Assembly (NCBI GenBank): GCA_021108275.1
Contig: JAIORD010000059.1
Span: 1 to 64,000 of the forward strand
From: Methanococcoides sp.
GTDB lineage: Archaea > Halobacteriota > Methanosarcinia > Methanosarcinales > Methanosarcinaceae
Direction: 5' to 3'
DNA: 64,000 nucleotides
Below, piece after piece: positions 10,499 through 56,953 of this stretch. The notes under the pieces are model-generated. The model searched no databases. It worked only from the letters and a program-made list of their open reading frames with translations, and had not been told where the DNA came from. The stretch's first letter is position 1; the number at the start of each line of letters is the position of its first letter. A program made the position numbers and the translations under genes.

Positions 10499-10830
10499 TG
10501 GGAAGTGCTCCTTTCATTCTCAAAAGGAACTATTATATTAGAACTTTGGGGTAATGGTCAAATTGTAAAAATACTACTCTTCTAAAAATTTAACTTATTT
10601 GAGTTCGAACCCAACCCTAGCATAGCAAGTCGGGGTAATAGGTATCTTGAAAAATAGATGCTCAAAAATTTTAAGAGTCAATTCAAAACAAAATATCAAA
10701 AATTGTTTAATTCTTGATTTTTTTGATTCATTTGAAAATCATCAATCGTATTTTATAATTGTTAAAAATTTAAGTTTCTTTGTTTTTATCTGATTTTGTT
10801 TGCAACATTATTAAAATAGCAGAAAATAGG

Positions 10831-10849
10831 GGCTCTGTAGAAATCCTCA
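10831..10849 (-). repeat. Solitary IS terminal-repeat-like sequence
   Basis: GGCTCTGTAGAAATCCTCA lies just beyond the end of the transposase fragment, where an IS terminal repeat is expected. Close variants occur at 11229-11247 (GGTTCTGTAGAAATTCTCA), inverted at 44443-44456 (ATTTCTACAGAGCC) and at 61494-61511 (GGCTCTGTGAAAATCCTC). Confidence 0.55.
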
Positions 10850-11032
10850 TTTGAATAATAAAAATAATCTGGCAAACCTGTCAATGTTATGCACTAATAC
10901 CTTGAATTTAATTTCTTTTAGCTGATTCCAGTACTTTTTTGCTCTAATTTCCTCACCATATTTTCTTTTCAGAACAGAGAACATCATTTCTGCCAGATTT
11001 CTATTATGATACAGTTCTTCATCAAATTCCAT
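10847..11032 (-). pseudogene. C-terminal fragment of a DDE transposase
   Basis: Only 61 residues remain. The pattern YHNRNLAE followed by [21 protein letters not shown] and ending [13 protein letters not shown] is the typical C-terminal end of DDE transposases of the IS5-like type common in Methanosarcinaceae; the Glu of NLAE would be the last catalytic residue. The N-terminal catalytic Asp residues are gone. It reads toward the IS-end motif at 10831-10849, so this is the right-hand stub of a dead insertion sequence. Confidence 0.7.
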
Positions 11033-11228
11033 ATCATTTTTCTACGGTACTTACCTTTGATCTTCTTTCTTTTCCTCTCTCTAAAAAAAATATATTGTTC
11101 ATCACCTATCAACATACTAAAATTTGTATTTAGAATTTGAAATTAGAATTAACGGTTCGTATATTTTATTAGTAGTGTACACTATTTTTAATATTACTTA
11201 AAATTCTACTTTAAAATGTAGAATTTTG

Positions 11229-11247
11229 GGTTCTGTAGAAATTCTCA
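11229..11247 (-). repeat. Second IS terminal-repeat-like sequence
   Basis: GGTTCTGTAGAAATTCTCA matches the IS-end motif at 10831 with few changes and in the same orientation. It lies about 115 bp before the 1091-residue gene and suggests more than one IS event at this border. Confidence 0.45.
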
Positions 11248-11361
11248 ATATTCGGACAATAATCCAATTTAAAAATATTGGGAGATGATAACTCCTTTTA
11301 ATTAGTGCTAACTGTGTTAACTTTTTGTTTAATTTATTTATTTCTTAGGAGGGAGATATCT

Positions 11362-14300
11362 ATGAAGAATGAAAATCCTCAAGGCACGGAAACAAAGAAC
11401 ATCAGTGTTTCCATAGATGAAGTCTTTAGCATAGTTGATTTAATAGAAACGGAAATTAGCAAACATGTTAAGCAACGCGAAACTTACGATGAAAGCCGAG
11501 CAGGTAAAACAAGAATAGATAAAGAAACAGTATTATCATCAATCGACGAGACCCTATCAATTAGCGATGCGATTCAAAGCAAAATAAATGAACACATATC
11601 AATGCGTGTCGCCAAGTCCAGGGTGTATGAACAAAAAGCAGAAGTTGCCTTTAAAAATTTCATTCCATCGAAAGTATCGGAGGAATTGCGTAAAGATACA
11701 ACTTACATTTCCTCGGGCGATAACCAACAGACGGCTCAGGAAACGATTATCAAAGCCGACCTCACCCAAATGGGGGAAGTGAAATGGAAAAAAGGTATTA
11801 CTCTAAGCCTGTCAGATAAGGATTTGAGTGAACTTGGAATTCAAAAAGTTGATGACGGGTCTATCGGGAATGTTCAACCAGACAAACTGATGGCCTATAT
11901 TGAAAAACGAACATTGCAGACTGAATTGTTTGCCAGAGCAGATTTGCTTACCAATTGCAAAGTAAGCAAAGTTGCTGAACAGGCCCTTGAAGATATTATC
12001 ATTCCTGAACCTGTTGAATCCACAGATACAACTCAATCGGATATCTTTGAGCAAAATACTGACAGTGAAGGAAATGAATTAACAGTAGATTCTTTGGTGA
12101 AAGACCAAGTTGCCTTGCAAATGAAGCATACCACTTCCCCGGAGGCGAAGTTGAATTTTGGAATTTCGGACCGTGCAAGTCAAAAGGATATTGAGCTGGA
12201 TACGAAAGGATTCAACATAAGCGGTGGTCCGGCAGATGTGGCTGCTTATCATGATTTTTATGATCTTCAAATTGCTTTCCGCCATATATGGACTGAATTA
12301 TTCGATCAAGAGTTGGCTAAAAAAGGAAAAGAGCTTTATGAGGAAGCTCTCAAAGAAAAAGACTATAAAGGTATAAAAATACCGAAAGACACGGTTACCT
12401 CAGTTGAGGAGCTTAAACAGTTTAAGGACTACTTGCGTCACACCAAAGAAAAAATCGCTGGTGATGATCCAAGATTTAAAGAGGTAAAAACCTATCTTTT
12501 GCCAGAAATAACGGCTTTTCAATGGAGCTGTTTGGACGAGCCAACACAAGATGCAATCTATGGTCTAATGCTCAGTTTGAAAGCAAGTTCCTCCGCATCT
12601 GGTTATGCTCCAGGTGCCGCCGGAAAGGTGGTATTTCAGGAACAAACAGATGCTCGAAAAATACTTGTTACTGCCCTTAATAAAAAAAGCAGAATTGAAA
12701 ATCTATTTGAAGATCTGGAAGAACGTTTGAAGGGAAAATACTCATTCGATGTTTTTGCAAAAAACGCCATCAACTTTGGTATCCTTGTTAACTATAGGCA
12801 AAAGTGGAACCCGCTGAATTATCAAGTCGGTGAACTTGTATCTACTATACCAATGGCTCCAAAGGAAGTACGCCGATATACAAAGAAAAAAGTCGTAAAA
12901 AAGAGTAGGGCCATCAAAGAAATAGAGAATGCCTTACAAATCAAAAAAATGGATTCTTCTGATACCTATCGTTCACATGCCGAGATTATTCGCCGTGCCA
13001 CGAACAAAACAAATTTCAACCATACGGCTGAAGGGGGGGTTAATTTTGCTGTTTGGAACGCAAAAGGAAGCCATAGTATGACAATTGATGCTGCCAAACA
13101 CTCCTCTCAAACAAAAAAGGAATTTCGCGAAGCCGTATTAAAGGCAGCACAAGAATATAAAAATGAATATAAGCTGGAGATAAATACGACTACCAGTGAA
13201 GAATATGAAGAGGCAACATCAGGCGAAATCAGTAATCCAAATGACGAAATTTCGGTTACGTACTTATTTTATGAACTTCAGCGTCGTTATGAAGTGAGCG
13301 AAAAAATCCATAAACTGACTCCGGTGGTATTAGTAGCCAATGAAGTACCTCGTCCAGATGAAATTGATGAAGATTGGCTGCTGGCCCATGATTGGATTTT
13401 AAGACGAGTGATTTTCGATGATTCTTTTGTTACCGGTTTAGATTACTTATCTGATAAGTTTGTTGGGGATGAGTTGTCAGTGGATGTACTTCAAAATAAT
13501 CTAGACATCCAGTTGAAAATAGTTGATAAGGTGGCACAACAAGTAACTATGACTTCCAAAGCCCTTGAGAAAACGCAAGAGGCTCTTGATATAGCCATGA
13601 ACAAATATGCTAAGAGTTTAACCAGCAAGGATGAAGGGTTCTTGTCCGACGTTAATACCTTTTTATTTGGCGGAGCATCAGATACGTCCGAAACGATCCT
13701 GGCCCGGGCAGAAGCAGCCAAGGAAACATTCCAACGTGCCGAGCGGAAAGAAAAAGAGATGCGCACACGTCTTCAACACGAAGTAACGGCACTAGAGTCT
13801 GCGACCAGTAAATACTCTCAAGCTCTTGAAGAACAATTTAATCGCAGAACTGAGATTCTGAGACTTCGAGTGCATGTGAAAGATAATATCCTTTATTATA
13901 TGCAGGCTATTTGGGACCAGGAACCACCAGACCAGCGGTTTTTTAGACTCTACCAACTTAAAGTCCCAGACATTAAGTATACTCCTGGGGTCAAATCCGC
14001 ACCTAGTGAAATAGATGTTTGGGTGGGCGGTAAAAAAACGCAATTCATAATCGATTTAAGTATTCCTGCACAAATTGACGTTAATTATAAGAGCTTAATA
14101 GAAGTCGCAGACCTTGACAACTTGCTTGGTTACAAAGGAAATTACATGATCTTTCCACTTAAACGAAATAATCCCGTGACCCTCTATATGATGCAGGACT
14201 ATATGGATCTACAAGAAACAGCACAGCTATGGGATCCAGATGAAGCAGGCAATTACACTATAGATGAATTAAAACAATTAATTCAATGTTATTTTGAGAT

Positions 14301-14637
14301 AAATCCAGGTGCTTTTACAGAGGACGTAAGGAACAAATATAGGGATTTGCTAATTAAGCGCCTCATGGACCCCCACCATGACAAAGAAATCGTTATCGCA
14401 CCGACAGATTCCCTATATATCGAGGCGTTACCAGGCAAGCATCCAATTCTCGAGGATTTCAAGCTTATCCATCGGGTAGTTGATGTTAAAAAGGCACAAT
14501 CTGAAGTGCGTCACGAAGAACTGGAGAATATTCGTCTGGCAGCCAGGGTAGTTAAAGGTGAATTTGATGACCCGGACGTGGAGAAGAAGATTGTTATTGA
14601 AAGGGATACAGACGTTAATGTCTCGACGGATTCCTAA
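11362..14637 (+). CDS. Large coiled-coil protein of unknown function (first gene of accessory unit)
   Basis: I do not recognise a named family. The frame is open from 11305, but AGGAGGG at 11347-11353 places the start at ATG 11362, giving 1091 residues. There is no signal peptide or membrane segment, so it should be cytoplasmic. The N-terminal 60 residues hold two short similar units (SIDEVFSIVDLIE and SIDETLSISDAIQ). A middle part (about residues 480-720) is mixed alpha/beta with a basic TKKKVVKKSRAIKEIENAL stretch and a well-ordered YLFYELQRRYEVSEKIHKLTP segment. Residues about 740-870 are coiled coil (ALEKTQEALDIAMNK, RAEAAKETFQRAERKEKEM). The C-terminal third carries a beta-rich domain and an EF-hand-like DPDEAGNYTIDEL loop. 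It is followed after 21 bp by the 529-residue gene. The size, cytoplasmic design and coiled coil suggest a scaffold or particle component; this is inference only. Confidence 0.8.
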   Translation: MKNENPQGTETKNISVSIDEVFSIVDLIETEISKHVKQRETYDESRAGKTRIDKETVLSSIDETLSISDAIQSKINEHISMRVAKSRVYEQKAEVAFKNFIPSKVSEELRKDTTYISSGDNQQTAQETIIKADLTQMGEVKWKKGITLSLSDKDLSELGIQKVDDGSIGNVQPDKLMAYIEKRTLQTELFARADLLTNCKVSKVAEQALEDIIIPEPVESTDTTQSDIFEQNTDSEGNELTVDSLVKDQVALQMKHTTSPEAKLNFGISDRASQKDIELDTKGFNISGGPADVAAYHDFYDLQIAFRHIWTELFDQELAKKGKELYEEALKEKDYKGIKIPKDTVTSVEELKQFKDYLRHTKEKIAGDDPRFKEVKTYLLPEITAFQWSCLDEPTQDAIYGLMLSLKASSSASGYAPGAAGKVVFQEQTDARKILVTALNKKSRIENLFEDLEERLKGKYSFDVFAKNAINFGILVNYRQKWNPLNYQVGELVSTIPMAPKEVRRYTKKKVVKKSRAIKEIENALQIKKMDSSDTYRSHAEIIRRATNKTNFNHTAEGGVNFAVWNAKGSHSMTIDAAKHSSQTKKEFREAVLKAAQEYKNEYKLEINTTTSEEYEEATSGEISNPNDEISVTYLFYELQRRYEVSEKIHKLTPVVLVANEVPRPDEIDEDWLLAHDWILRRVIFDDSFVTGLDYLSDKFVGDELSVDVLQNNLDIQLKIVDKVAQQVTMTSKALEKTQEALDIAMNKYAKSLTSKDEGFLSDVNTFLFGGASDTSETILARAEAAKETFQRAERKEKEMRTRLQHEVTALESATSKYSQALEEQFNRRTEILRLRVHVKDNILYYMQAIWDQEPPDQRFFRLYQLKVPDIKYTPGVKSAPSEIDVWVGGKKTQFIIDLSIPAQIDVNYKSLIEVADLDNLLGYKGNYMIFPLKRNNPVTLYMMQDYMDLQETAQLWDPDEAGNYTIDELKQLIQCYFEINPGAFTEDVRNKYRDLLIKRLMDPHHDKEIVIAPTDSLYIEALPGKHPILEDFKLIHRVVDVKKAQSEVRHEELENIRLAARVVKGEFDDPDVEKKIVIERDTDVNVSTDS

Positions 14638-14658
14638 GTTGAATCCGGATGGTTTTCC

Positions 14659-16248
14659 ATGGCTAATCCTACAAACAACACACAGTCGAGTTCTCGTGGT
14701 ACTGCAACCACGAGTACGACTCCGGATTCACGATTAAATGCGCGTCCTCATACAGTATTTCGTTACCGAGGTATGAAAAGAGAGTCAGTACAGCGACTTG
14801 ACAGCTATGCAGCTTCCCTGCGGCAAGGGATGCAAGCCAGCGTAAGAACAATGTCCAATAGTCAACTTTTAGACGAGGCCAAGCTGCTGAACACTCGTCT
14901 TTTTGAATCAAAAGAAGAAATTGGTCCGCAGGAAAAAGAAGCGATTGCGGAAACCTTGATATTAATGCGACAGGAGCTTGCGTACCGTATTCAAAAGGCT
15001 GCAGAACACCAAAAAACGACTCAACCGGTCCTTGAGCATATCAAATGGGAGGGCAAAGGCGGGCATGTCAATGATATCTACCCATTTTTCATGGTTGATT
15101 ATTGGTCGACCTTTGTAAAAACAAAGTCGCTGTCCAAGTTCATCCTCCCGAAGTCTGCTGAAATCGCCAAATGGACGAATACAAAACTAATAGAAGAAGC
15201 AGAAGGACTCAATAATATTTTCCAGAAGTATCTAACGGCGAAAGAAAAAACGAAAAAGAATATAAGCCCGATTGCGGACACATTAATCGTCATGCACAAT
15301 GATATGGATCGGCGGATTGGGGAGGCAACGAGAAAGCAAATGAAGTTCCCCCCCATTCTCAGAGGAGTTACCTGGATTAGCGAGAATCTTGTAGGAATTG
15401 CAGAGGGAGTTTCCCCGTTTTCAATGATCGATATCTGGAGCTTGTACAAAAGTCCGAAGCAACGACCGAAACGTCTTGTGAAACGATATTCTTTTGGAGA
15501 TGAGGTAATAGAGGGGGATTTCCCTCAAAAACCAAAGAAATGTATAGTCCCTACAAGAATTACAGAGAAGAAGGCGGCAGATAGAGCGCGAAAAGCAATT
15601 GATATTGCCGCTCGCTTGGCGAACTTCAAGGGGGAATTGTGGTATTACTGCATACTGCATCGGATGGGAAAACGCAATGCTGATATGTGGTGGATGGACC
15701 AAAATGCGTTTATTGCAGCAGGCATTTTTGAAAAAGATTTGTTGGTAAACTTTAAGTTAAGGATTGAAAAAGATGCAGCAGTTAAGACTACTAAGATAGG
15801 GAATTATACACTTTCAACTAAGCAGATAACAAAACTGAACAAAATTGATAAAGATTGGGCACGAAAAATTGTATACCCTGAAGAATTCGGGATGACTAAG
15901 CATAGAGCTGATTTGGAGTGTATAAAGCTTGCAAAAGTGTTAGCTAAACCTGAACTGGACAAGTATTGGGTCCAGCATTTGAAAAATAGAAATGCCAGTA
16001 GAGAATTACTGAAAATAATAAGAGACTCATGGTGCGATGACAGGATTATCTTGACTAAATTAAGTGAACTTCGCAAGAAAACAGATGATGCATTTTCACA
16101 GATGAAGACAATTGAAAATAGTGTGCCTAATTGTGATACTTCATCTACGGCGCCCTATCTTACCAGGAAAATTTGTAGTAGATGGAAAAAAGCGGTAGAT
16201 GACAATAATTCCTTTCTCAACTGTAAAAAAAAATATGGGAATAAATGA
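14659..16248 (+). CDS. Unknown protein with an internal duplication (second gene of accessory unit)
   Basis: This 529-residue protein is not recognised. After a Ser/Thr-rich N-terminal tail of about 30 residues come two copies of a helical unit: residues about 65-150 and 170-265 each contain a leucine-rich helix (DEAKLLNTRLFESKEEIG versus EEAEGLNNIFQKYLTAKEK), a helix with LILMRQELAYRI or LIVMHNDMDRRI, and end in a Pro-Phe-Met-Trp signature (YPFFMVDYWSTF versus SPFSMIDIWSLY). The C-terminal half is basic and helical, with a Trp-rich GELWYYCILHRMGKRNADMWWMDQ segment. No signal peptide. Its gene starts 21 bp after the 1091-residue gene and is followed 10 bp later by the broken third gene, so the three formed one transcription unit. 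Confidence 0.8.
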   Translation: MANPTNNTQSSSRGTATTSTTPDSRLNARPHTVFRYRGMKRESVQRLDSYAASLRQGMQASVRTMSNSQLLDEAKLLNTRLFESKEEIGPQEKEAIAETLILMRQELAYRIQKAAEHQKTTQPVLEHIKWEGKGGHVNDIYPFFMVDYWSTFVKTKSLSKFILPKSAEIAKWTNTKLIEEAEGLNNIFQKYLTAKEKTKKNISPIADTLIVMHNDMDRRIGEATRKQMKFPPILRGVTWISENLVGIAEGVSPFSMIDIWSLYKSPKQRPKRLVKRYSFGDEVIEGDFPQKPKKCIVPTRITEKKAADRARKAIDIAARLANFKGELWYYCILHRMGKRNADMWWMDQNAFIAAGIFEKDLLVNFKLRIEKDAAVKTTKIGNYTLSTKQITKLNKIDKDWARKIVYPEEFGMTKHRADLECIKLAKVLAKPELDKYWVQHLKNRNASRELLKIIRDSWCDDRIILTKLSELRKKTDDAFSQMKTIENSVPNCDTSSTAPYLTRKICSRWKKAVDDNNSFLNCKKKYGNK

Positions 16249-16258
16249 TAAGGAGCAT

Positions 16259-16712
16259 ATGCCGCGGCTAATCGGGTAGCCGGGAGTATTTCTACCCGAC
16301 TACTTTTAAGCCGACTAAAAGGTATGCACTTTACAACAAAGAAGGAGATAATTTCAGTTTATATGAGCATGAAAGATCCTATAAGTTACATGGCTTAGGC
16401 CATTTGAACAATCCTTTTCCTAATGGTGATAAAGAATGGCATGCTGATATCTGGTTGGACATTCTGCGTTTACATTATGGGATTATAAAACCAATAAATA
16501 TTGAAAGCAAGTATTCTTCTCTTTTTGCTACCCCACAACTTACAGTTAGTACTCCAAATGTACTAAGAAGATTTAAGAAAATTAACAAAAGGAAGCCGTG
16601 GTCAAAGCGGATAAAGCCTTTCAATTTTTGCAGTGTAGGTTTTCAGGTCATAAAGGAAGCTGAGAAACCTGTCAAGCCTTTAGCTCCTTTTTCCAATGAT
16701 CCTCAGAAAATC
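16259..16712 (+). pseudogene. Third gene of the accessory unit, frameshifted and cut off at its 3' end
   Basis: AAGGAG at 16250-16255 and ATG at 16259 start a frame that stops after six codons (MPRLIG, TAG at 16277). Skipping one T at that point continues with SREYFYPTTFKP and a good coding pattern: KRYALYNKEGD, then EHERSYKLHGLGHLNNPFP, WHADIWLDILRLHYG and RIKPFNFCSVGF. The segments are ordered like a real protein, faintly recalling fragments of plasmid-borne polymerase-like proteins, but I would not name it. Coding similarity ends near 16712; beyond that the frame is only the antisense of the ABC ATPase gene. So the gene has one frameshift and a lost C-terminus, and 16712 is the right edge of the insert. 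The stop lies inside a small hairpin (16272-16299). Confidence 0.55.
16272..16299. other. Hairpin at the frameshift site
   Basis: TCGGGTAG (16272-16279) and CTACCCGA (16292-16299) form an 8-bp stem with a 12-nt loop. The 5' arm contains the premature TAG of the third gene. It may act as a terminator for the two upstream genes, or be a chance palindrome created by the mutation. Confidence 0.4.
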
Positions 16713-49452: not shown

Positions 49453-49591
49453 CCTTTTCAAGAGTGTGTGGTAATGACAAATAGAAATTTTGAATGAAAT
49501 GAAAATGTGTGGTTAATAAAAGTTTGAGACATCCCGGAGCCAGCCTCCAAGCAATGTTCCGGGACGTCTTGCACATTATTAGGTGGATAAC

Positions 49592-52500
49592 ATGCAAAAT
49601 GTAAAACATAAATTATTGATTTTAAGTGTATTGCTTATGCTGGCACTCATACCAGTGGTATCGGCAGAAGAAGATGAATATGCAAATATGGAACTTTTTG
49701 GCAGTACGATCAGTGAGAGTAGTACTGCAGAATATAGTTTTTCTAATTTGCCTGATGGCTTCTATAAGATAAGATCCGCATGGGAATCCGAATCTCCAAT
49801 GGGGGGTATCTATTACTTCATTGGAGAACGGACCGTAATTGTCCAGGATGGAAATGCTGTTAGTGGTGCGGATGTAATTGCAGAATCCGTTACCCAAACC
49901 GAGATGGATCAGCTAAAGGACAGGATCGAGAATGGCACCTGTGCAGCATATATTGGTCAGGCAACAGTTTCAGGAACAGCAATGTTCGAGATGATGCCTG
50001 GAACAAACGTTGCACAAAAGAATGCAACCATGGGAATCTTTAGGATACCTGTGGAAGAAACATTGATGGCAACTGTGACCAGCGATAGTGACACTGCTGA
50101 ATATGGCTTTTCTGATTTGCCTGATGGCTTCTACAAGATAAAATCCGTTTGGGAATCCGAATCTCCAATGGGGGGTATCTATTACTTCATCGGAGAAAAG
50201 ACCGTAATTATCCAAAATGGAAATGCTGTTAGTGGTGCGGATGTAATTGCGGAATCCATTACCAAAACTGAGATGGATTTGCTAAAGGATAGGATCGAGA
50301 ATGGTACAATTTCATCTTACAGCGGTCAATCATCAATCTCAGGAACTGCTATGTTCGAGATGATGCCTGGAACAAACGTTGCACAAAAGAATGCTACAAT
50401 GGGAATCTTTAGGATACCTGTGGAAGAAACATTGATGGCAACTGTGACCAGCGATAGTGACACTGCTGAATATGGCTTTTCTGATTTGCCTGATGGCTTC
50501 TACAAGATAAAATCCGTTTGGGAATCCGAATCTCCAATGGGGGGTATCTATTACTTCATCGGAGAAAAGACCGTAATTATCCAAAATGGAAATGCTGTTA
50601 GTGGTGCGGATGTAATTGCGGAATCCATTACCAAAACTGAGATGGATTTGCTAAAGGATAGGATCGAGAATGGTACAATTTCATCTTACAGCGGTCAATC
50701 ATCAATCTCAGGAACTGCTATGTTCGAGATGATGCCTGGAACAAACGTTGCACAAAAGAATGCTACAATGGGAATCTTTAGGATACCTGTGGAAGAAACA
50801 TTGATGGCAACTGTGACCAGCGATAGTGACACTGCTGAATATGGCTTTTCTGATTTGCCTGATGGTTTGTACAAGATAAAATCTGCCTGGGAATCCGAAT
50901 CCCCAATGGGAGGCATCTATTACTTCATTGGAGAAAAGACAGTAATTATCCAAAATGGAAATGCTGTTAATGGTGTGGACGTAATTGCAGAATCCGTTAC
51001 CAAAACTGAGATGGATCTGCTAAAGGACAGGATCGAGAATGGTACCAGTTCATTTTACAGTGGTCAATCATCAATCTCAGGAACTGCGATGTTCGAGATG
51101 ATGCCTGGAACAAACGTTGCACAAAAGAATGCAACCATGGGAATATTCAGGATACCTGTGGATGAATCATTGATAGCAATCGGGACCAGCGATGGTGCTA
51201 CTGCAGCGTATGATTTTGGCAGCCTTCCAGATGGCCTTTACAAGGTCAGATCTGTCAAGGAATCCCAGTCCCCAATGGGAGGTACCTATTACTTCATCGG
51301 AGAAAGAACGGTGGTCGTGCAGGATGGAAATGCCATCACAGGCGCCGCTTTTATTTCAGAATCCACCAGCAAGACCAAGATGGATCTGCTAAAGGATATT
51401 ATCGAGAACGGAACCTCTGCCGCTTACAGTGGTCAGGGGACGGTTTCAGGAACAGTGATGTTCGAGATGATGCCCGGAACCAACATGCCACAGCAGAATG
51501 CAACCATGGGAATATTCCTTGAGGAATTGTTCGAAACTAAAACATCACCATCACCATCTATAGACGTGTCAGCAAGATTCTCTGCAAATGCAACTTCCGG
51601 TGATTCCCCTCTTACAGTTCAGTTCACAGATGAATCCGTAGATGCTTTATCATGGTTCTGGGACTTTGGAGATGGAACTAATTCAACCATACAGAACCCT
51701 GTCCACACTTATGGTAGTGTGGGAAATTATGATGTATCACTTACAATAACAGCTCCGGATGGCACAGGTACTGAGGTAAAGAAGGATTACATCACCACAC
51801 AACTTCCGGATATGTATAAAGACAAGAAGATCCTGTTCCTGATAATTGGCGCAGAAGAAACATGCTGGGTAAAAGAAGCAGCTATAGAAATGGGTCTGAA
51901 CAATGTCGATGTCTATGGTAGCTACCGCATGATTGAGGTTGATAACCTTTACAGTCCCTTCAATGATAGTATTGATACAGGTCTATATGACATCATATTC
52001 ATATCACGAAAAGGTGGAATGAGTTTCCTTGGATCAAATCTGAAGCCACAGATAGTTGAAATGATGGAAAATAAGAATCCTGAAGCACAGGTCGTTGACT
52101 GGAACTATGGAGTAGGGACAGTAAACCATACAGAACATCAATACATTGCTGACTATTGGGATGAGGAATATGATGGAAATGTCATTCGTCTGATCACATA
52201 TCTTTCAGTAGTGGACCTTTCAAGACCATTCAGTGAATATGATGGCACAATAGAGATCGAAGAACCAGCTATAATGCCGGATGTAGGGATCTATCACCCT
52301 GATGCCAGAATGGTCTTCGATGATCTGGAATCCTATTTAGAATGGTATGGAGAAGACACTGGAACCCACCATGTCTATAACCCGGATAATTACACAGTAG
52401 GCATTACTTTCTTCCCAGCCGGGGATGATAGTATATGTAACGAGGTTATAGAGAGCGTTATAACTGAACTTGAGTCCAGGGGAATTAACGCCATCCCGGC

Positions 52501-54253
52501 CTACAGGCCAGATGTCCTGTATACAGATAATGCCTACCGCTTCTTCACTGTCGATGGTGAATGGAAAACAGATGCTTTCATCGATCTTGGAAAAGGTGTA
52601 TGGATCATGTCCTCTCTTGTGAGTGACACAGAATACCTGGAGGAAGCAAATGTTCCGGTCATCAATGGAATCATCTATCAGGGTACCATTGAAGAATGGG
52701 AGAATTCCAGTACAGGTCAAGACTGCTGGTTCCAGTACCAGATCCCGATCATGGAGATCGGTGGTGAGATCGAGTCCATAGTAGTTGGAGGTCAGGAATA
52801 TGATGAAAACCTGGGTGCCAGAGTGCTCAAACCTATTGATTACCAGATAGACTGGATGATCGACAGGACTGTAAGCTGGATTGACTTACAGCATACCGAT
52901 AATGAGGACAAGAAAGTTGCGGTCATATACTATGCCCATGGAAAGCAGTCGGCACTGGTAGCAAGCAACCTTGATGTGGTCCCAAGTATTCCGAACTTCC
53001 TGAACGCCATGAACCAGAGCGGTTACGACCTTGGTGGATCACAGCTAAACGATTCCGAATTCCTGGAAACTGTGCTTCAGCAGGGAAGGAACATTGGGGT
53101 ATGGGCTCCCGGCGAACTTGAATACATGGTCGAGAACTATGATGTCGAGCTATTGCCTGTGGAAACCTACATGGAATGGTTCAACGACGAGATTGAAACC
53201 GAGGCAAGGCAAAGCGTACTTGATGCATGGGGAGAAGCACCAGGAAATGCAATGGTCTATGAGAACGAGAGTGGAAAGTACTTTGTCTTCCCGAAGATCG
53301 AAGCCGGAAACGTCCTTGTTCTTCCTCAGCCTGCAAGAGGATTCTCACAGAATGATACTACACTTTATCATGACCAGACAATACCACCTTCACATCACTA
53401 CATTGCATTCTATCTCTGGCTGGAGAATGGGTTCGATGCCGATTCCATTGTACACTTCGGACGCCATGGAACACAGGAATGGCTGCAGGGCAAGGGTACA
53501 AGCCTTTCTGTAAAAACCTGCTGGCCTGCAATCCTTATACAGGATACACCTGTAGTGTATCTCTACGATGTTGGAGGTATTGGGGAAGGAATAACAGCAA
53601 AGAGGAGAGGCAATGCTGTAATGGTTGACCATTCAACACCTGCCATCGTTAGTGCAGGCCTGTACGGCAATCTCACACTCCTGCATGACAAGATGCACTA
53701 CTACGAGACAGAAGAAGACCCAGTCATGGTAGAGAAATACAGGATTTCAATTATAGAGACATACGATGAGCTGAATTTCGAACAGGAATTCAATGTTTCT
53801 GCAGATGACCTGAGGAATATGAATGATACAGAGTTTGACAATTTTGTGCTGACAGGTCCGGTACACGACTATCTGCATGAACTTGCAAGCGAATACATAC
53901 CATATGGATTGCATGTCCTCGGAGAACAAATGAATCAGGAAGGGCAAATAGCTATGGTGAAATCAATGCTTGGCCTGGAGTTTGAGGAGCATGTCAAAGC
54001 GATATGCGATGATCCGCATGAAGTGGATACAGCACATTCACCGAATATTCTTGACAACCTGTTAGAAGATGTTCTTGTCAATGAATTGTCACCGACCGAT
54101 GCAGTTACAGGTCGGTTCAACACTTCAGGCATCACCACGAACGTCGTTTCGACGGTAATAAGTGATGAAAATGGAACATATGAGTTCACAGACATCAAAG
54201 ATGGGAATTACACGATATATGCAGCAAATTATATTGATTCGATGGACTTCTGA
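49592..54253 (+). CDS. Giant cell-surface CobN/HmuS-type chelatase, N-terminal part up to an in-frame TGA
   Basis: This frame of 1553 codons starts at ATG 49592 (AGGTGG 5 nt upstream; GTG 49583 is less likely). A signal peptide (LLILSVLLMLALIPVVSA) is followed by five copies of a 123-residue beta repeat (about 49720-51530) with LPDGFYKIKS, SPMGGIYYFIGE and GTAMFEMMPGTN; copies two and three are identical in DNA. Then come a PKD domain (about 51585-51800, WDFGDGTN) and a CobN chelatase domain (from about 51815) with the active-site-like HFGRHGTQEWLQGKG (53451) and GIGEGITAKRRGNAVMVDHSTP. The chelatase is then interrupted by inserted carboxypeptidase-regulatory-like repeats, inside the first of which the TGA at 54251 falls. 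The C-terminal half of CobN continues in the same frame at 54254. Likely an outer-surface tetrapyrrole metal chelatase or dechelatase; by its domains related to HmuS. Confidence 0.85.
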   Translation: MQNVKHKLLILSVLLMLALIPVVSAEEDEYANMELFGSTISESSTAEYSFSNLPDGFYKIRSAWESESPMGGIYYFIGERTVIVQDGNAVSGADVIAESVTQTEMDQLKDRIENGTCAAYIGQATVSGTAMFEMMPGTNVAQKNATMGIFRIPVEETLMATVTSDSDTAEYGFSDLPDGFYKIKSVWESESPMGGIYYFIGEKTVIIQNGNAVSGADVIAESITKTEMDLLKDRIENGTISSYSGQSSISGTAMFEMMPGTNVAQKNATMGIFRIPVEETLMATVTSDSDTAEYGFSDLPDGFYKIKSVWESESPMGGIYYFIGEKTVIIQNGNAVSGADVIAESITKTEMDLLKDRIENGTISSYSGQSSISGTAMFEMMPGTNVAQKNATMGIFRIPVEETLMATVTSDSDTAEYGFSDLPDGLYKIKSAWESESPMGGIYYFIGEKTVIIQNGNAVNGVDVIAESVTKTEMDLLKDRIENGTSSFYSGQSSISGTAMFEMMPGTNVAQKNATMGIFRIPVDESLIAIGTSDGATAAYDFGSLPDGLYKVRSVKESQSPMGGTYYFIGERTVVVQDGNAITGAAFISESTSKTKMDLLKDIIENGTSAAYSGQGTVSGTVMFEMMPGTNMPQQNATMGIFLEELFETKTSPSPSIDVSARFSANATSGDSPLTVQFTDESVDALSWFWDFGDGTNSTIQNPVHTYGSVGNYDVSLTITAPDGTGTEVKKDYITTQLPDMYKDKKILFLIIGAEETCWVKEAAIEMGLNNVDVYGSYRMIEVDNLYSPFNDSIDTGLYDIIFISRKGGMSFLGSNLKPQIVEMMENKNPEAQVVDWNYGVGTVNHTEHQYIADYWDEEYDGNVIRLITYLSVVDLSRPFSEYDGTIEIEEPAIMPDVGIYHPDARMVFDDLESYLEWYGEDTGTHHVYNPDNYTVGITFFPAGDDSICNEVIESVITELESRGINAIPAYRPDVLYTDNAYRFFTVDGEWKTDAFIDLGKGVWIMSSLVSDTEYLEEANVPVINGIIYQGTIEEWENSSTGQDCWFQYQIPIMEIGGEIESIVVGGQEYDENLGARVLKPIDYQIDWMIDRTVSWIDLQHTDNEDKKVAVIYYAHGKQSALVASNLDVVPSIPNFLNAMNQSGYDLGGSQLNDSEFLETVLQQGRNIGVWAPGELEYMVENYDVELLPVETYMEWFNDEIETEARQSVLDAWGEAPGNAMVYENESGKYFVFPKIEAGNVLVLPQPARGFSQNDTTLYHDQTIPPSHHYIAFYLWLENGFDADSIVHFGRHGTQEWLQGKGTSLSVKTCWPAILIQDTPVVYLYDVGGIGEGITAKRRGNAVMVDHSTPAIVSAGLYGNLTLLHDKMHYYETEEDPVMVEKYRISIIETYDELNFEQEFNVSADDLRNMNDTEFDNFVLTGPVHDYLHELASEYIPYGLHVLGEQMNQEGQIAMVKSMLGLEFEEHVKAICDDPHEVDTAHSPNILDNLLEDVLVNELSPTDAVTGRFNTSGITTNVVSTVISDENGTYEFTDIKDGNYTIYAANYIDSMDF
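49720..51530 (+). repeat. Five tandem 369-bp coding repeats
   Basis: Units begin near 49720, 50089, 50458, 50827 and 51196, each 369 bp (123 codons), the last incomplete. Units two and three are identical over essentially the full length, units one and four are close, unit five is diverged. This implies recent duplication or gene conversion within the gene and in-frame length change. Confidence 0.85.
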
Positions 54254-56953
54254 ATGATTAATAAGGAAAGTCTTCACATAGAGAACGAACAGGATGTTTT
54301 TGACAAAGATATTTGCATTGTAGCCGACCACGAAGAGCTTGATAATGTCCTGGGGCTTTTGCATGATTCTAGGTTGATAGGTGATGCATCTGTCTCAGGA
54401 AAGACATTCTCAAACGGCCCAATGGGTCTCACAAATCTCTCAGGGTCAATTGTTGCAGTTAAACAGGGTACAGAGATCCTGGGGGTAGTTGAAAGTGATT
54501 CCGAAGGAACATACAGTTTCACAGAACTTAACGATGGGGAATACACGGTAGTTGCGATTAATTATGTCAGTGCAATGAGCTTCTGGACAATCGGAGAAGT
54601 TACACTTAACATTGGATCCGGGCAGAACATCGCAGATCAGAACATTGAGTTGAAGGTTGACAATAGCAATGAGGTTGATGCTCTTCTTTCAGAGCTACCA
54701 ATTGCATCCGTTTCAGGAAAGACATTTGCAAATGGTCCTATGGGCCTGACAAACCTATCCGATTCAATTGTTGTGCTCAAACAGGATTCGGAGATTCTAG
54801 AAGTAACAGAAAGCGATGCAGAGGGAACTTACAGGTTCTCGGATCTTAAAGATGGAGAATACACTGTAGTTGCAATTAACTACGTAAGTGCAATGAATTT
54901 CTGGATGATCGGAGAAACGACAGTCAATATTCAATCTGGACAGAACATGGAAGATATGGATCTTGAACTTACACGTGACAACAACAATGATGTGGATGAG
55001 GTACTATCCCTTATCGAGGGTGCGTCTGTCTCAGGTGAAATATACTCAAATGGTCCGATGGGTTATACTGACCAACCCGGAAGCATCGTTGTCGTCGTTC
55101 AAACCCAGGCAGACATAAATAAAGGGCAAGAGCAGGTTATAGATGATCTGGAACTTGCTATTCTCTATTCTGAGAACATCAGAGCCTGCAAGGATCTGGA
55201 GATCCAGAGCATGCTCAATGCTCTTGATGGAAGGTATATCCCACCAGCTCTCGGAGATGATCCGGTGAGAAGCCCGGATGTCATGCCTACCGGAAAGAAC
55301 TTCTTCGCATTTAATCCAAGTCTTGTTCCAACGGAGGAGGCATGGGATGCCGGACAGATCCTTGTGGATGCATTCCTGGAAGAATGGGTCACCCGGAACG
55401 GAGATTATCCAAGAAAAGTTGGATTTGTACTGTGGTCTGGTGAGTCAATGAGACACAAGGGTGTCATGGAATCCGAGATCCTTTATATGATGGGTGTTCG
55501 ACCTGTATGGGATTCTTCAGGCAATTTTATCGATGTGGGGATTATTCCGGAAGAAGAACTTGGCAGGCCCAGGATCGATTCTGTTGTCACCATGACCGGC
55601 ATCTACCGTGATAACTGGAAGTGGCAGGTTGAGCTTATGGATAGGGGTGCACGTCTGGCAGCCATAGAAAACAGTTCCTCATATGCAAATTATGTCAGTG
55701 AGAACTCCGATCTGATCTATGAGGCATTGATGGCCACAGGCAACTATTCAGAAGAAGAGGCGAGGCAGCTTTCAATGTGCAGGGTATTCGGTCCCGACGA
55801 AGGTAGCTGGGGAGCCGGTGGATTCAGAGAAGCTGTAAGTGCCAGTGGTACCTGGGAAGAAGAAAGCAAGCTTGCCAACCTCTACATAGACTCCATGAGC
55901 TATGCATATGGTGACGACATATGGGGCAATTGTGACGGGGATGTTTTCAGACAGGTACTTTCCGAAACAGATGCTGTAATGTTCAGTCGCAGTGGCAATG
56001 ACAACCGTGGAAGTGGTAGTGTGGTCTTTGATCATGTCTACGAGTTCTTCGGAGGATTTGGAATGGCTGTGAGGAACGTATCAGGAGATACTCCTGAGAT
56101 GTATATCGCAAATCTCAAGGATCCGAACGAGGCCTTCGTAGAGACAATGGGTGAGTTCCTTGCAAGGGACCTTCGTTCCAAGTACTTCAATCCAAAATGG
56201 ATCGAAGGTATGATGGAGCACGGTTACACCGGAGCAAGCGAGATGGACAGTGTTCTTAAAGACTTCTTCGGATTGGGTGTCACGCTGCCGGATGAGATCA
56301 CGGATGATATGTGGAACGAGTTCTATGATGTGTATGTTCTGGACAAGTACGACCTAGGCCTAGATGAATGGTTCCAGGAGGAGAACCCATGGGCTAGCCA
56401 GTCCATGGATGCCAGAATGCTGGAAGCCGTACGTAAGGGCTACTGGGATGCCTCAGATGAGGTCGTCCAGAACCTTGTAAAGGAATATGTTGAATCCGTT
56501 GTGCAGGATGGTGTTACATGCTGCCATCACACCTGTGGAAACCCAACACTTGATAGCTATGTCCAAGGCATAATGTCTGTACCTGGAGTTATCGATCAGG
56601 ATACTATGGATGAGTACAACCGGTTGATGAAAGAAGCAACACATAGGGTGCCATCAGCTTCCAGATCCACTTCTCACAGTAGCAGTGGGTCGAGTGCCTC
56701 TGCTTCTATAGTGGAATCCACAAACAACCAGACTTCTGTAAGTGATGCAGGTTACGGAACAACAACTGAACAGGCAACTAAACAAATCACACCCGATAAT
56801 TATGTTGAAGGATACGAAATGACAAAAGAATCCGTAAACAATGAGGAAAATGCGTCATCAACATCCTTCTCCAGTGCTGATATTTTAGGCAGTGTGTTGG
56901 TCATATTAGCAGTTGGTGCCATATCTATCGGTTTCAGGAGACGAAGGATCTAA
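54254..56953 (+). CDS. Surface CobN/HmuS-type chelatase, C-terminal part after the TGA
   Basis: This 899-codon frame directly follows the TGA in the same frame and has no signal peptide and no ribosome site, so it is the continuation of the same gene and not an independent one. It completes the broken repeat (MINKESLHIENEQ...), has two more full repeats and part of a third (VSGKTFSNGPMGLTNLS, FWTIGEVTLNIGSGQN), then resumes CobN: VIDDLELAILYSENIRACKDLEIQSMLNALDGRYIPP, DVMPTGKNFFAFNPSLVP, FVLWSGESMRHKGVMESEILYMMGVRPVWD and WKWQVELMDRGARLA. A Ser-rich linker (about residues 780-830) leads to a C-terminal membrane helix (ILGSVLVILAVGAISIGF) and RRRR, anchoring it outside the cell. CTCCHHTCGN (near 755) is a Cys/His cluster that could hold metal. 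Confidence 0.8.
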   Translation: MINKESLHIENEQDVFDKDICIVADHEELDNVLGLLHDSRLIGDASVSGKTFSNGPMGLTNLSGSIVAVKQGTEILGVVESDSEGTYSFTELNDGEYTVVAINYVSAMSFWTIGEVTLNIGSGQNIADQNIELKVDNSNEVDALLSELPIASVSGKTFANGPMGLTNLSDSIVVLKQDSEILEVTESDAEGTYRFSDLKDGEYTVVAINYVSAMNFWMIGETTVNIQSGQNMEDMDLELTRDNNNDVDEVLSLIEGASVSGEIYSNGPMGYTDQPGSIVVVVQTQADINKGQEQVIDDLELAILYSENIRACKDLEIQSMLNALDGRYIPPALGDDPVRSPDVMPTGKNFFAFNPSLVPTEEAWDAGQILVDAFLEEWVTRNGDYPRKVGFVLWSGESMRHKGVMESEILYMMGVRPVWDSSGNFIDVGIIPEEELGRPRIDSVVTMTGIYRDNWKWQVELMDRGARLAAIENSSSYANYVSENSDLIYEALMATGNYSEEEARQLSMCRVFGPDEGSWGAGGFREAVSASGTWEEESKLANLYIDSMSYAYGDDIWGNCDGDVFRQVLSETDAVMFSRSGNDNRGSGSVVFDHVYEFFGGFGMAVRNVSGDTPEMYIANLKDPNEAFVETMGEFLARDLRSKYFNPKWIEGMMEHGYTGASEMDSVLKDFFGLGVTLPDEITDDMWNEFYDVYVLDKYDLGLDEWFQEENPWASQSMDARMLEAVRKGYWDASDEVVQNLVKEYVESVVQDGVTCCHHTCGNPTLDSYVQGIMSVPGVIDQDTMDEYNRLMKEATHRVPSASRSTSHSSSGSSASASIVESTNNQTSVSDAGYGTTTEQATKQITPDNYVEGYEMTKESVNNEENASSTSFSSADILGSVLVILAVGAISIGFRRRRI

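What the first reader, a model, noticed from the sequence alone, without database searches (positions are those of the whole stretch)
11362..16712. Undescribed three-gene unit (1091 aa, 529 aa and a third, broken gene) in an accessory insert
The three genes are closely spaced in one direction (21 bp and 10 bp between them) and bordered by IS remnants on the left and a sharp junction with the ABC operon on the right. The proteins are cytoplasmic, large, coiled-coil or repeat-built and match no family I can name. The second protein has an internal duplication ending each time in a Pro-Phe-Met-x-x-x-Trp signature. Fixed sets of unnamed large proteins in a mobile region are typical of defence, conflict or particle-forming systems. 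This is the best candidate for a new system in the window.
Basis: partly seen in the sequence, partly recalled or inferred. Interest (0 to 1): 0.7.

Follow-up and report, generated by a model that had tools for sequence, protein, structure and literature searches.

The report
Carrier-plus-variable-toxin gene pair in methanogen
A methane-producing archaeon carries a mobile two-gene unit, one conserved large protein followed by a partner that differs completely from lineage to lineage, which looks like an undescribed toxin-delivery pair shared by archaea and bacteria.

Summary
The two large genes are real: A (11362-14637, 1091 aa) and B (14659-16248, 529 aa). The third gene is not part of the unit: it is a fragment of a multi-copy family-B DNA-polymerase-like gene and is absent from a horizontally moved copy of the pair. 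A and B are under purifying selection. They occur in 3 of 100 relatives, including another genus at 95% DNA identity over the pair only, so they move as one cassette.

Relatives of A (30-63% identity) occur in another archaeal class, a haloarchaeal plasmid and rhizobial megaplasmids. In each of the five lineages A is followed, on the same strand, by a 323-604-aa gene whose product has no detectable similarity to the other lineages' partners, except a Pre-toxin TG (PF14449) region shared by the haloarchaeal and Sinorhizobium ones. A also shares its middle and C-terminal domains with large proteins that carry fused effector-like domains (for example Peptidase_C70) where A stops.

Best reading: A is a conserved carrier or delivery protein and B a lineage-specific toxin supplied in trans. 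Export route, toxicity and B's activity are untested. No immunity gene and no contractile sheath were found.

The parts
11362..14637 (+). Gene A, 1091 aa: conserved carrier-like protein. Middle domain about residues 465-720 with a Ser/Thr/Gly-rich hairpin-like segment at about 550-585, coiled-coil stretch about 710-830, C-terminal conserved domain about 835-1075.
14659..16248 (+). Gene B, 529 aa: variable partner (putative effector). Tandem duplicated helical unit at about 59-160 and 166-275, each ending PFxMxDxWS; lineage-specific C-terminus.
11279..16314 (+). Extent of the horizontally moved cassette, as shared with another genus (G013) at 95.3% DNA identity.
16265..16313 (+). Hairpin directly behind B, at the right end of the cassette; possible transcription end (not called by the consensus terminator scan).
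10830..10849 (+). IS-end-like 20-nt repeat (GGGCTCTGTAGAAATCCTCA).
11228..11247 (+). Second IS-end-like repeat (90% identical) just left of the cassette.
10847..11032 (-). 61-aa ORF that reads like a transposase C-terminal fragment (by eye).
   Evidence: not confirmed by a profile
16314..16712 (+).

Best explanation
A and B form a two-component toxin-like system that spreads as a cassette. A is a conserved, non-Sec carrier or delivery protein. B is the effector, encoded as a separate gene right behind it and replaced from lineage to lineage, in the manner of polymorphic toxins. Shown by sequence: conserved A, non-homologous B, fixed gene order, mobility, Pre-toxin TG domains in the haloarchaeal and Sinorhizobium partners, and homology of A to proteins that carry effector-like domains fused at their C-terminus. 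Inferred: that A binds B and carries it out of the cell or across a target membrane, possibly through the Ser/Thr/Gly-rich hairpin between two long charged stretches; that B then poisons the recipient (other members probably being nucleases); and that release is by lysis or an unknown exporter.
For: (1) A is 30-63% identical over roughly 700-1100 residues across five independent lineages, all pairs E < 1e-85. (2) In all of them a same-strand gene of 323-604 aa follows A at -17 to +100 bp. (3) The B proteins have no detectable similarity between lineages (E > 1), except a ~117-aa PT-TG region shared by Salinirubellus and Sinorhizobium. (4) PF14449 Pre-toxin TG above cut-off in the partners of Salinirubellus (3.7e-9), S. 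terangae (1.5e-13) and S. mexicanum (1.2e-13). (5) A's middle domain (hhalign 99.4%, E 3e-21) and C-terminal domain (96.2%, E 2e-9) recur in 1000-1760-aa proteins, several of which continue into Peptidase_C70 (E 7e-25), DUF2272 (E 1e-15) or an OmpA match just below cut-off, where A stops and B begins. (6) The same cassette sits in another genus at 95.3% identity with sharp ends. In G003 the insert is about 99% identical to the window while flanks are mostly 90-97% (dS 0.016 in A against 0.21 for a flanking gene). (7) Purifying selection on both genes, dN/dS about 0.24 against G013.
Against: The window's own B has no toxin or pre-toxin domain match and no relative outside the three methanogen copies. 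No immunity-like gene follows B in any locus. There is no signal peptide on A or B and no contractile sheath gene in the host, so no export route is known. The nuclease-like C-termini of other partners are my motif reading; Pfam gives no toxin domain there. Structure predictions without usable alignments were uninformative (pLDDT 37 and 43). Only five independent A lineages were found.
Confidence: 0.58

Rival explanations
1. An intracellular defence or abortive-infection system: A is the conserved sensor or scaffold and B the exchangeable killer that acts in the infected host cell itself, so that no export is needed.
For: No signal peptides, no export genes seen, mobility, a conserved-sensor plus variable-effector layout, and no immunity gene needed if B is held inactive by A.
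Against: No PADLOC match. The Pre-toxin TG domain and fused domains such as OmpA, DUF2272 and Peptidase_C70 in A's cousins point to extracellular or delivered effectors. A has no recognisable sensor, NTPase or nucleotide-binding domain.
Confidence: 0.17
2. A structural or envelope-associated protein pair (surface appendage, storage or particle-forming) whose partner merely evolves fast; no toxin is involved.
For: Large helical and repeat-built proteins; the window's B has no toxin signature; a fused cousin has an OmpA-like segment.
Against: Partners are non-homologous, not just diverged; Pre-toxin TG domains; patchy, mobile distribution.
Confidence: 0.15
3. Cargo or structural genes of an unrecognised virus or transposable element, with A and B serving the element's own transfer.
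For: Sharp cassette ends, IS ends at the left, transposase genes near several copies.
Against: No relatives in IMG/VR or among phage records; no recombinase, replication or packaging gene travels with the pair; A and B alone make up the shared stretch.
Confidence: 0.08

Closest known systems
Polymorphic toxin systems (Zhang et al. 2012, PMC3482391)
   Same: Conserved trafficking-type part with a variable toxic-type part; pre-toxin domain PF14449 in the haloarchaeal and Sinorhizobium partners; mobile; partners replaced by non-homologous versions.
   Different: The toxin-like part is a separate gene rather than a C-terminal domain of the carrier; no known leader domain matched; no immunity gene seen.
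Large unnamed proteins with a fused effector-like C-terminus (G093 and G416 with Peptidase_C70-like ends; Haladaptatus with DUF2272; Psychrobacter with an OmpA match; also Streptomyces, Ruegeria, Nostoc)
   Same: Share A's middle domain and its C-terminal domain, including the Ser/Thr/Gly-rich segment after the LAP motif.
   Different: Effector is fused in one polypeptide; only about 20% identity; N-terminal halves unrelated in sequence.
PVC / extracellular contractile injection toxins
   Same: Diverse effectors and frequent lack of immunity genes (PMC3482391).
   Different: No sheath gene in the hosts and no tail genes nearby.
Two-component (AB-type) protein toxins
   Same: A conserved translocating partner with a separate active partner would be the same working principle.
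   Different: No sequence relation to any such toxin in Pfam or the PDB; analogy only.

Membership tests
Polymorphic toxin systems | Conserved trafficking part combined with non-homologous toxic parts | tested here: met
   A pairs 30-63% identity, E < 1e-85; cross-lineage B pairs E > 1 except the PT-TG region
Polymorphic toxin systems | Recognised pre-toxin or toxin domain | tested here: inconclusive
   PF14449 above cut-off in the Salinirubellus and two Sinorhizobium partners; none in the window's B or in the Ciceribacter and G339 partners
Polymorphic toxin systems | Known secretion leader | tested here: not met
   no family match and no signal-like N-terminus in A or B
Polymorphic toxin systems | Adjacent immunity gene | tested here: not met
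   only spurious or unrelated short ORFs after B in all loci; PVC-type toxins also often lack one
Polymorphic toxin systems | Toxicity of the variable part | not testable with these tools
   needs expression experiments
Pre-toxin TG family PF14449 (window's B) | Match above the gathering score | tested here: not met
   no match listed in the window's B even at E 10
Extracellular contractile injection / PVC toxins | Contractile sheath gene in the host | tested here: not met
   PF04984 absent from six genomes, three control genomes ring
Known anti-phage defence systems | Match to a PADLOC model | tested here: not met
   best is Csm2 at E 0.02, 13.9 bits, below NCBIfam's own cut-off for that family
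Core family of the fused-effector proteins | Shared middle and C-terminal domains | tested here: met
   hhalign probability 99.4% and 96.2%

The most novel reading that the evidence does not exclude
A is the founding member of an unrecognised, non-Sec, non-contractile protein delivery platform found in archaea and bacteria. It works either with the effector fused to it or with exchangeable effectors supplied by the next gene, and in methanogens it serves as a weapon against neighbours.
Probability: 0.3. Interest if true: 0.78.

Novelty: new variant of a known kind. Interest (0 to 1): 0.55.

Why it matters
Polymorphic toxins are considered rare in archaea (PMC3482391), and the carrier family has no name in Pfam, NCBIfam, PHROGs or PADLOC. 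If A delivers B, it gives a new way to find effectors: look at the gene behind A. It would point to protein warfare by methanogens, about which little is known, and it joins a set of large unnamed bacterial and archaeal proteins with fused effector-like domains into one testable family.

Tried and rejected
Third gene as immunity or third component: rejected, it is a PolB-like fragment outside the moved cassette. Viral origin: no relatives of A or B in IMG/VR, and none of A among phage records; the fused family gave no IMG/VR hit either, and its single phage-collection hit (MT835996) is an unverified scaffold whose genes look like actinobacterial chromosome. Contractile injection system: no sheath gene. 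Structure: two single-sequence AlphaFold2 runs gave pLDDT 37 and 43 and were discarded. PDB sequence and profile searches gave only chance hits. Weak Pfam hits (DUF2225, YebG, Csm2) were not believed: below cut-off. Homology of the window's B with the 323-aa partner in G339: some pattern similarity around 'DLEC', but BLASTP E 0.13-1.7, so not claimed. Hits of the A profile in G220, G287, G296, G061 and G289 cover only the transthyretin-like N-terminal domain that the window's A lacks.

Full report
OBSERVATION. Gene A (11362-14637) and gene B (14659-16248) lie in the same direction, 21 bp apart. A is preceded by AGGAGG. No library names either protein: the best hits are DUF2225, YebG and Csm2, all below cut-off. 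Neither has a signal-like N-terminus or a transmembrane-grade segment. B's internal duplication is strong (score 125 against a maximum of 51 in 1000 shuffles) and each copy ends in PF[FS]M[VI]D[YI]WS. The third gene does not hold. The longer frame (16314-16712) is a C-terminal piece of a ~890-aa protein with the family-B DNA polymerase motifs DFTSMYPTV and YMDTDSVF (motif reading from general knowledge); intact copies are scattered through Methanococcoides and relatives.

WHOSE GENOME. The contig of the near-identical neighbour G003 (36786 bases) has the length of JAIORJ010000186.1, a Methanococcoides MAG contig that carries the same genes at 99%. G003 is of the same genus as the window, so the window is taken to be from Methanococcoides.

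A CASSETTE THAT MOVES. Among 100 relatives A is found full length only in G000, G003 and G013, and B only in the same three. G013 belongs to another genus, yet its copy is 95.3% identical over window 11279-16314. Apart from a 46-bp match at 10825-10870 (an IS end), nothing else in the window matches that locus. The shared stretch begins in the leader of A and ends just after a hairpin behind B (MFE -21.7 kcal/mol, z -2.3; not called by the consensus terminator scan). In G003 the whole insert from about 10.4 to 16.7 kb is 98-100% identical to the window, while most flanking 400-base windows are 90-97%. Synonymous divergence is 0.016 in A and 0.012 in B against 0.21 in a flanking gene. The insert was therefore most likely exchanged between the two species after they split. 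In G006, the only other relative in which both flanks were found in the fetched stretch, 4.4 kb of other DNA occupies the site. IS-end-like repeats lie at 10830 and 11228, and a transposase gene with the same kind of end lies just left of the G013 copy. Both genes are under purifying selection (dN/dS 0.24 against G013). The part with the highest dN/dS is B 267-399 (0.80) and the lowest is the middle of A, 365-728 (0.05). G013's A has one in-frame TAG at codon 780; that genome encodes a pyrrolysyl-tRNA synthetase, so the codon may be read through, or the gene may be broken there.

RELATIVES OF A. tblastn against plasmids finds A in a Salinirubellus plasmid (haloarchaeon), Sinorhizobium terangae, S. 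mexicanum and Ciceribacter thiooxidans, with decayed scraps in S. medicae and Ensifer. A phylum sample of 394 genomes adds G339, in another class of the phylum, at 63% identity. All A pairs align over roughly 700-1100 residues at 30-63% identity (the two Sinorhizobium and the methanogen copies among themselves higher) with E < 1e-85. The haloarchaeal and rhizobial copies carry an extra N-terminal transthyretin-like domain (fold by eye).

WHAT FOLLOWS A. In each of these loci a same-strand gene of 323-604 aa comes next, at -17 to +100 bp. These partners are not homologous between lineages: BLASTP E > 1 for all cross-lineage pairs except Salinirubellus and Sinorhizobium, which share about 117 residues covering PF14449, Pre-toxin TG. 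Beyond that stretch they differ. By eye the Sinorhizobium and Salinirubellus C-termini have the D...(D/E)xK...Q layout of restriction-endonuclease-like nucleases, and the Ciceribacter one an LEH...N...NL layout of HNH nucleases; this is a lead, not a test. None of the partners queried (window, S. mexicanum, Salinirubellus, Ciceribacter) has a relative elsewhere in the plasmid collection beyond its own lineage.

THE FUSED COUSINS. A's middle region (about 465-720) and its C-terminal region (about 835-1040) match, in profile-profile comparison, a second set of 1000-1760-aa proteins from methanogens, haloarchaea, Proteobacteria, Streptomyces and Nostoc (99.4%, E 3e-21; 96.2%, E 2e-9). Several of these continue past the shared C-terminal domain into an effector-like domain: Peptidase_C70 in G093 (E 7e-25) and, by sequence similarity, G416; DUF2272 in Haladaptatus (E 1e-15); an OmpA match just below cut-off in Psychrobacter; and by eye a lytic-transglycosylase-like end in Caballeronia and a GH19-like end in Nostoc. 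A ends where these proteins continue, and B starts there. In nearly all members examined a Ser/Thr/Gly-rich, charge-poor segment lies about 50-75 residues behind the LAP motif, between two long charged, probably helical stretches (the Salinirubellus peak fell further downstream). This pattern would suit a hairpin that inserts into a membrane, but the only structure prediction possible (no alignment) was worthless.

MECHANISM. Shown: conserved A, replaced B, fixed order, cassette mobility, pre-toxin domains in the haloarchaeal and Sinorhizobium partners, effector-like domains fused to A's cousins. Inferred: A binds and delivers B; B acts in a recipient; the hairpin helps it across. Unknown: the way out of the producing cell. 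There is no signal peptide, no sheath gene in six host genomes and no immunity gene. Toxins of PVC-type contractile injection systems also often lack immunity genes (PMC3482391), so the absence does not exclude a toxin; it would fit a target unlike the producer. The strongest rival is an intracellular defence pair, with A as sensor and B as killer.

VERDICT. It is a two-gene, not a three-gene, unit; the carrier is conserved and the partner is exchangeable. It works like a polymorphic toxin with the toxin in trans, but it is not filed as a member: the secretion leader and immunity gene were looked for and not found, and toxicity is untested. Novelty: a new variant of a known kind, built on an unnamed carrier family.

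Noticed in passing
window 49583-56953: A CobN/Mg-chelatase-like surface protein with PKD and carboxypeptidase-regulatory domains is split by one TGA at 54251-54253, where the sister repeats in the same protein read SAMSFW/SAMNFW (Trp): an interrupted or read-through cobaltochelatase-like gene.
   Followed up: partly
L032 3333-4343, L033 6916-7938, L034 7062-7754: The transthyretin-like domain at the N-terminus of several A homologues also heads 230-340-aa ORFs near radical-SAM genes with a PqqD-like N-terminus in other archaea of the phylum, possibly peptide-natural-product clusters.
   Followed up: no
L009 9584-12859, codon 780: The G013 copy of A has an in-frame TAG where the window has CTG; G013 encodes PylS, so this may be a pyrrolysine codon or a recent break.
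   Followed up: partly
window 16314-16712 and many genome loci: A ~890-aa family-B DNA-polymerase-like gene is multi-copy in Methanococcoides, with many fragments, suggesting a mobile element of its own.
   Followed up: partly
L038 9651-10649 and L042 9854-11092: In Ruegeria and Novosphingobium the cousins of A are also followed directly by a gene, and the two downstream proteins resemble each other by eye (EIGGYLNLL...IRSDF): a further partner family.
   Followed up: no
L073 (MT835996): A GenBank record labelled Bacteriophage sp. looks like a piece of an actinobacterial chromosome.
   Followed up: partly
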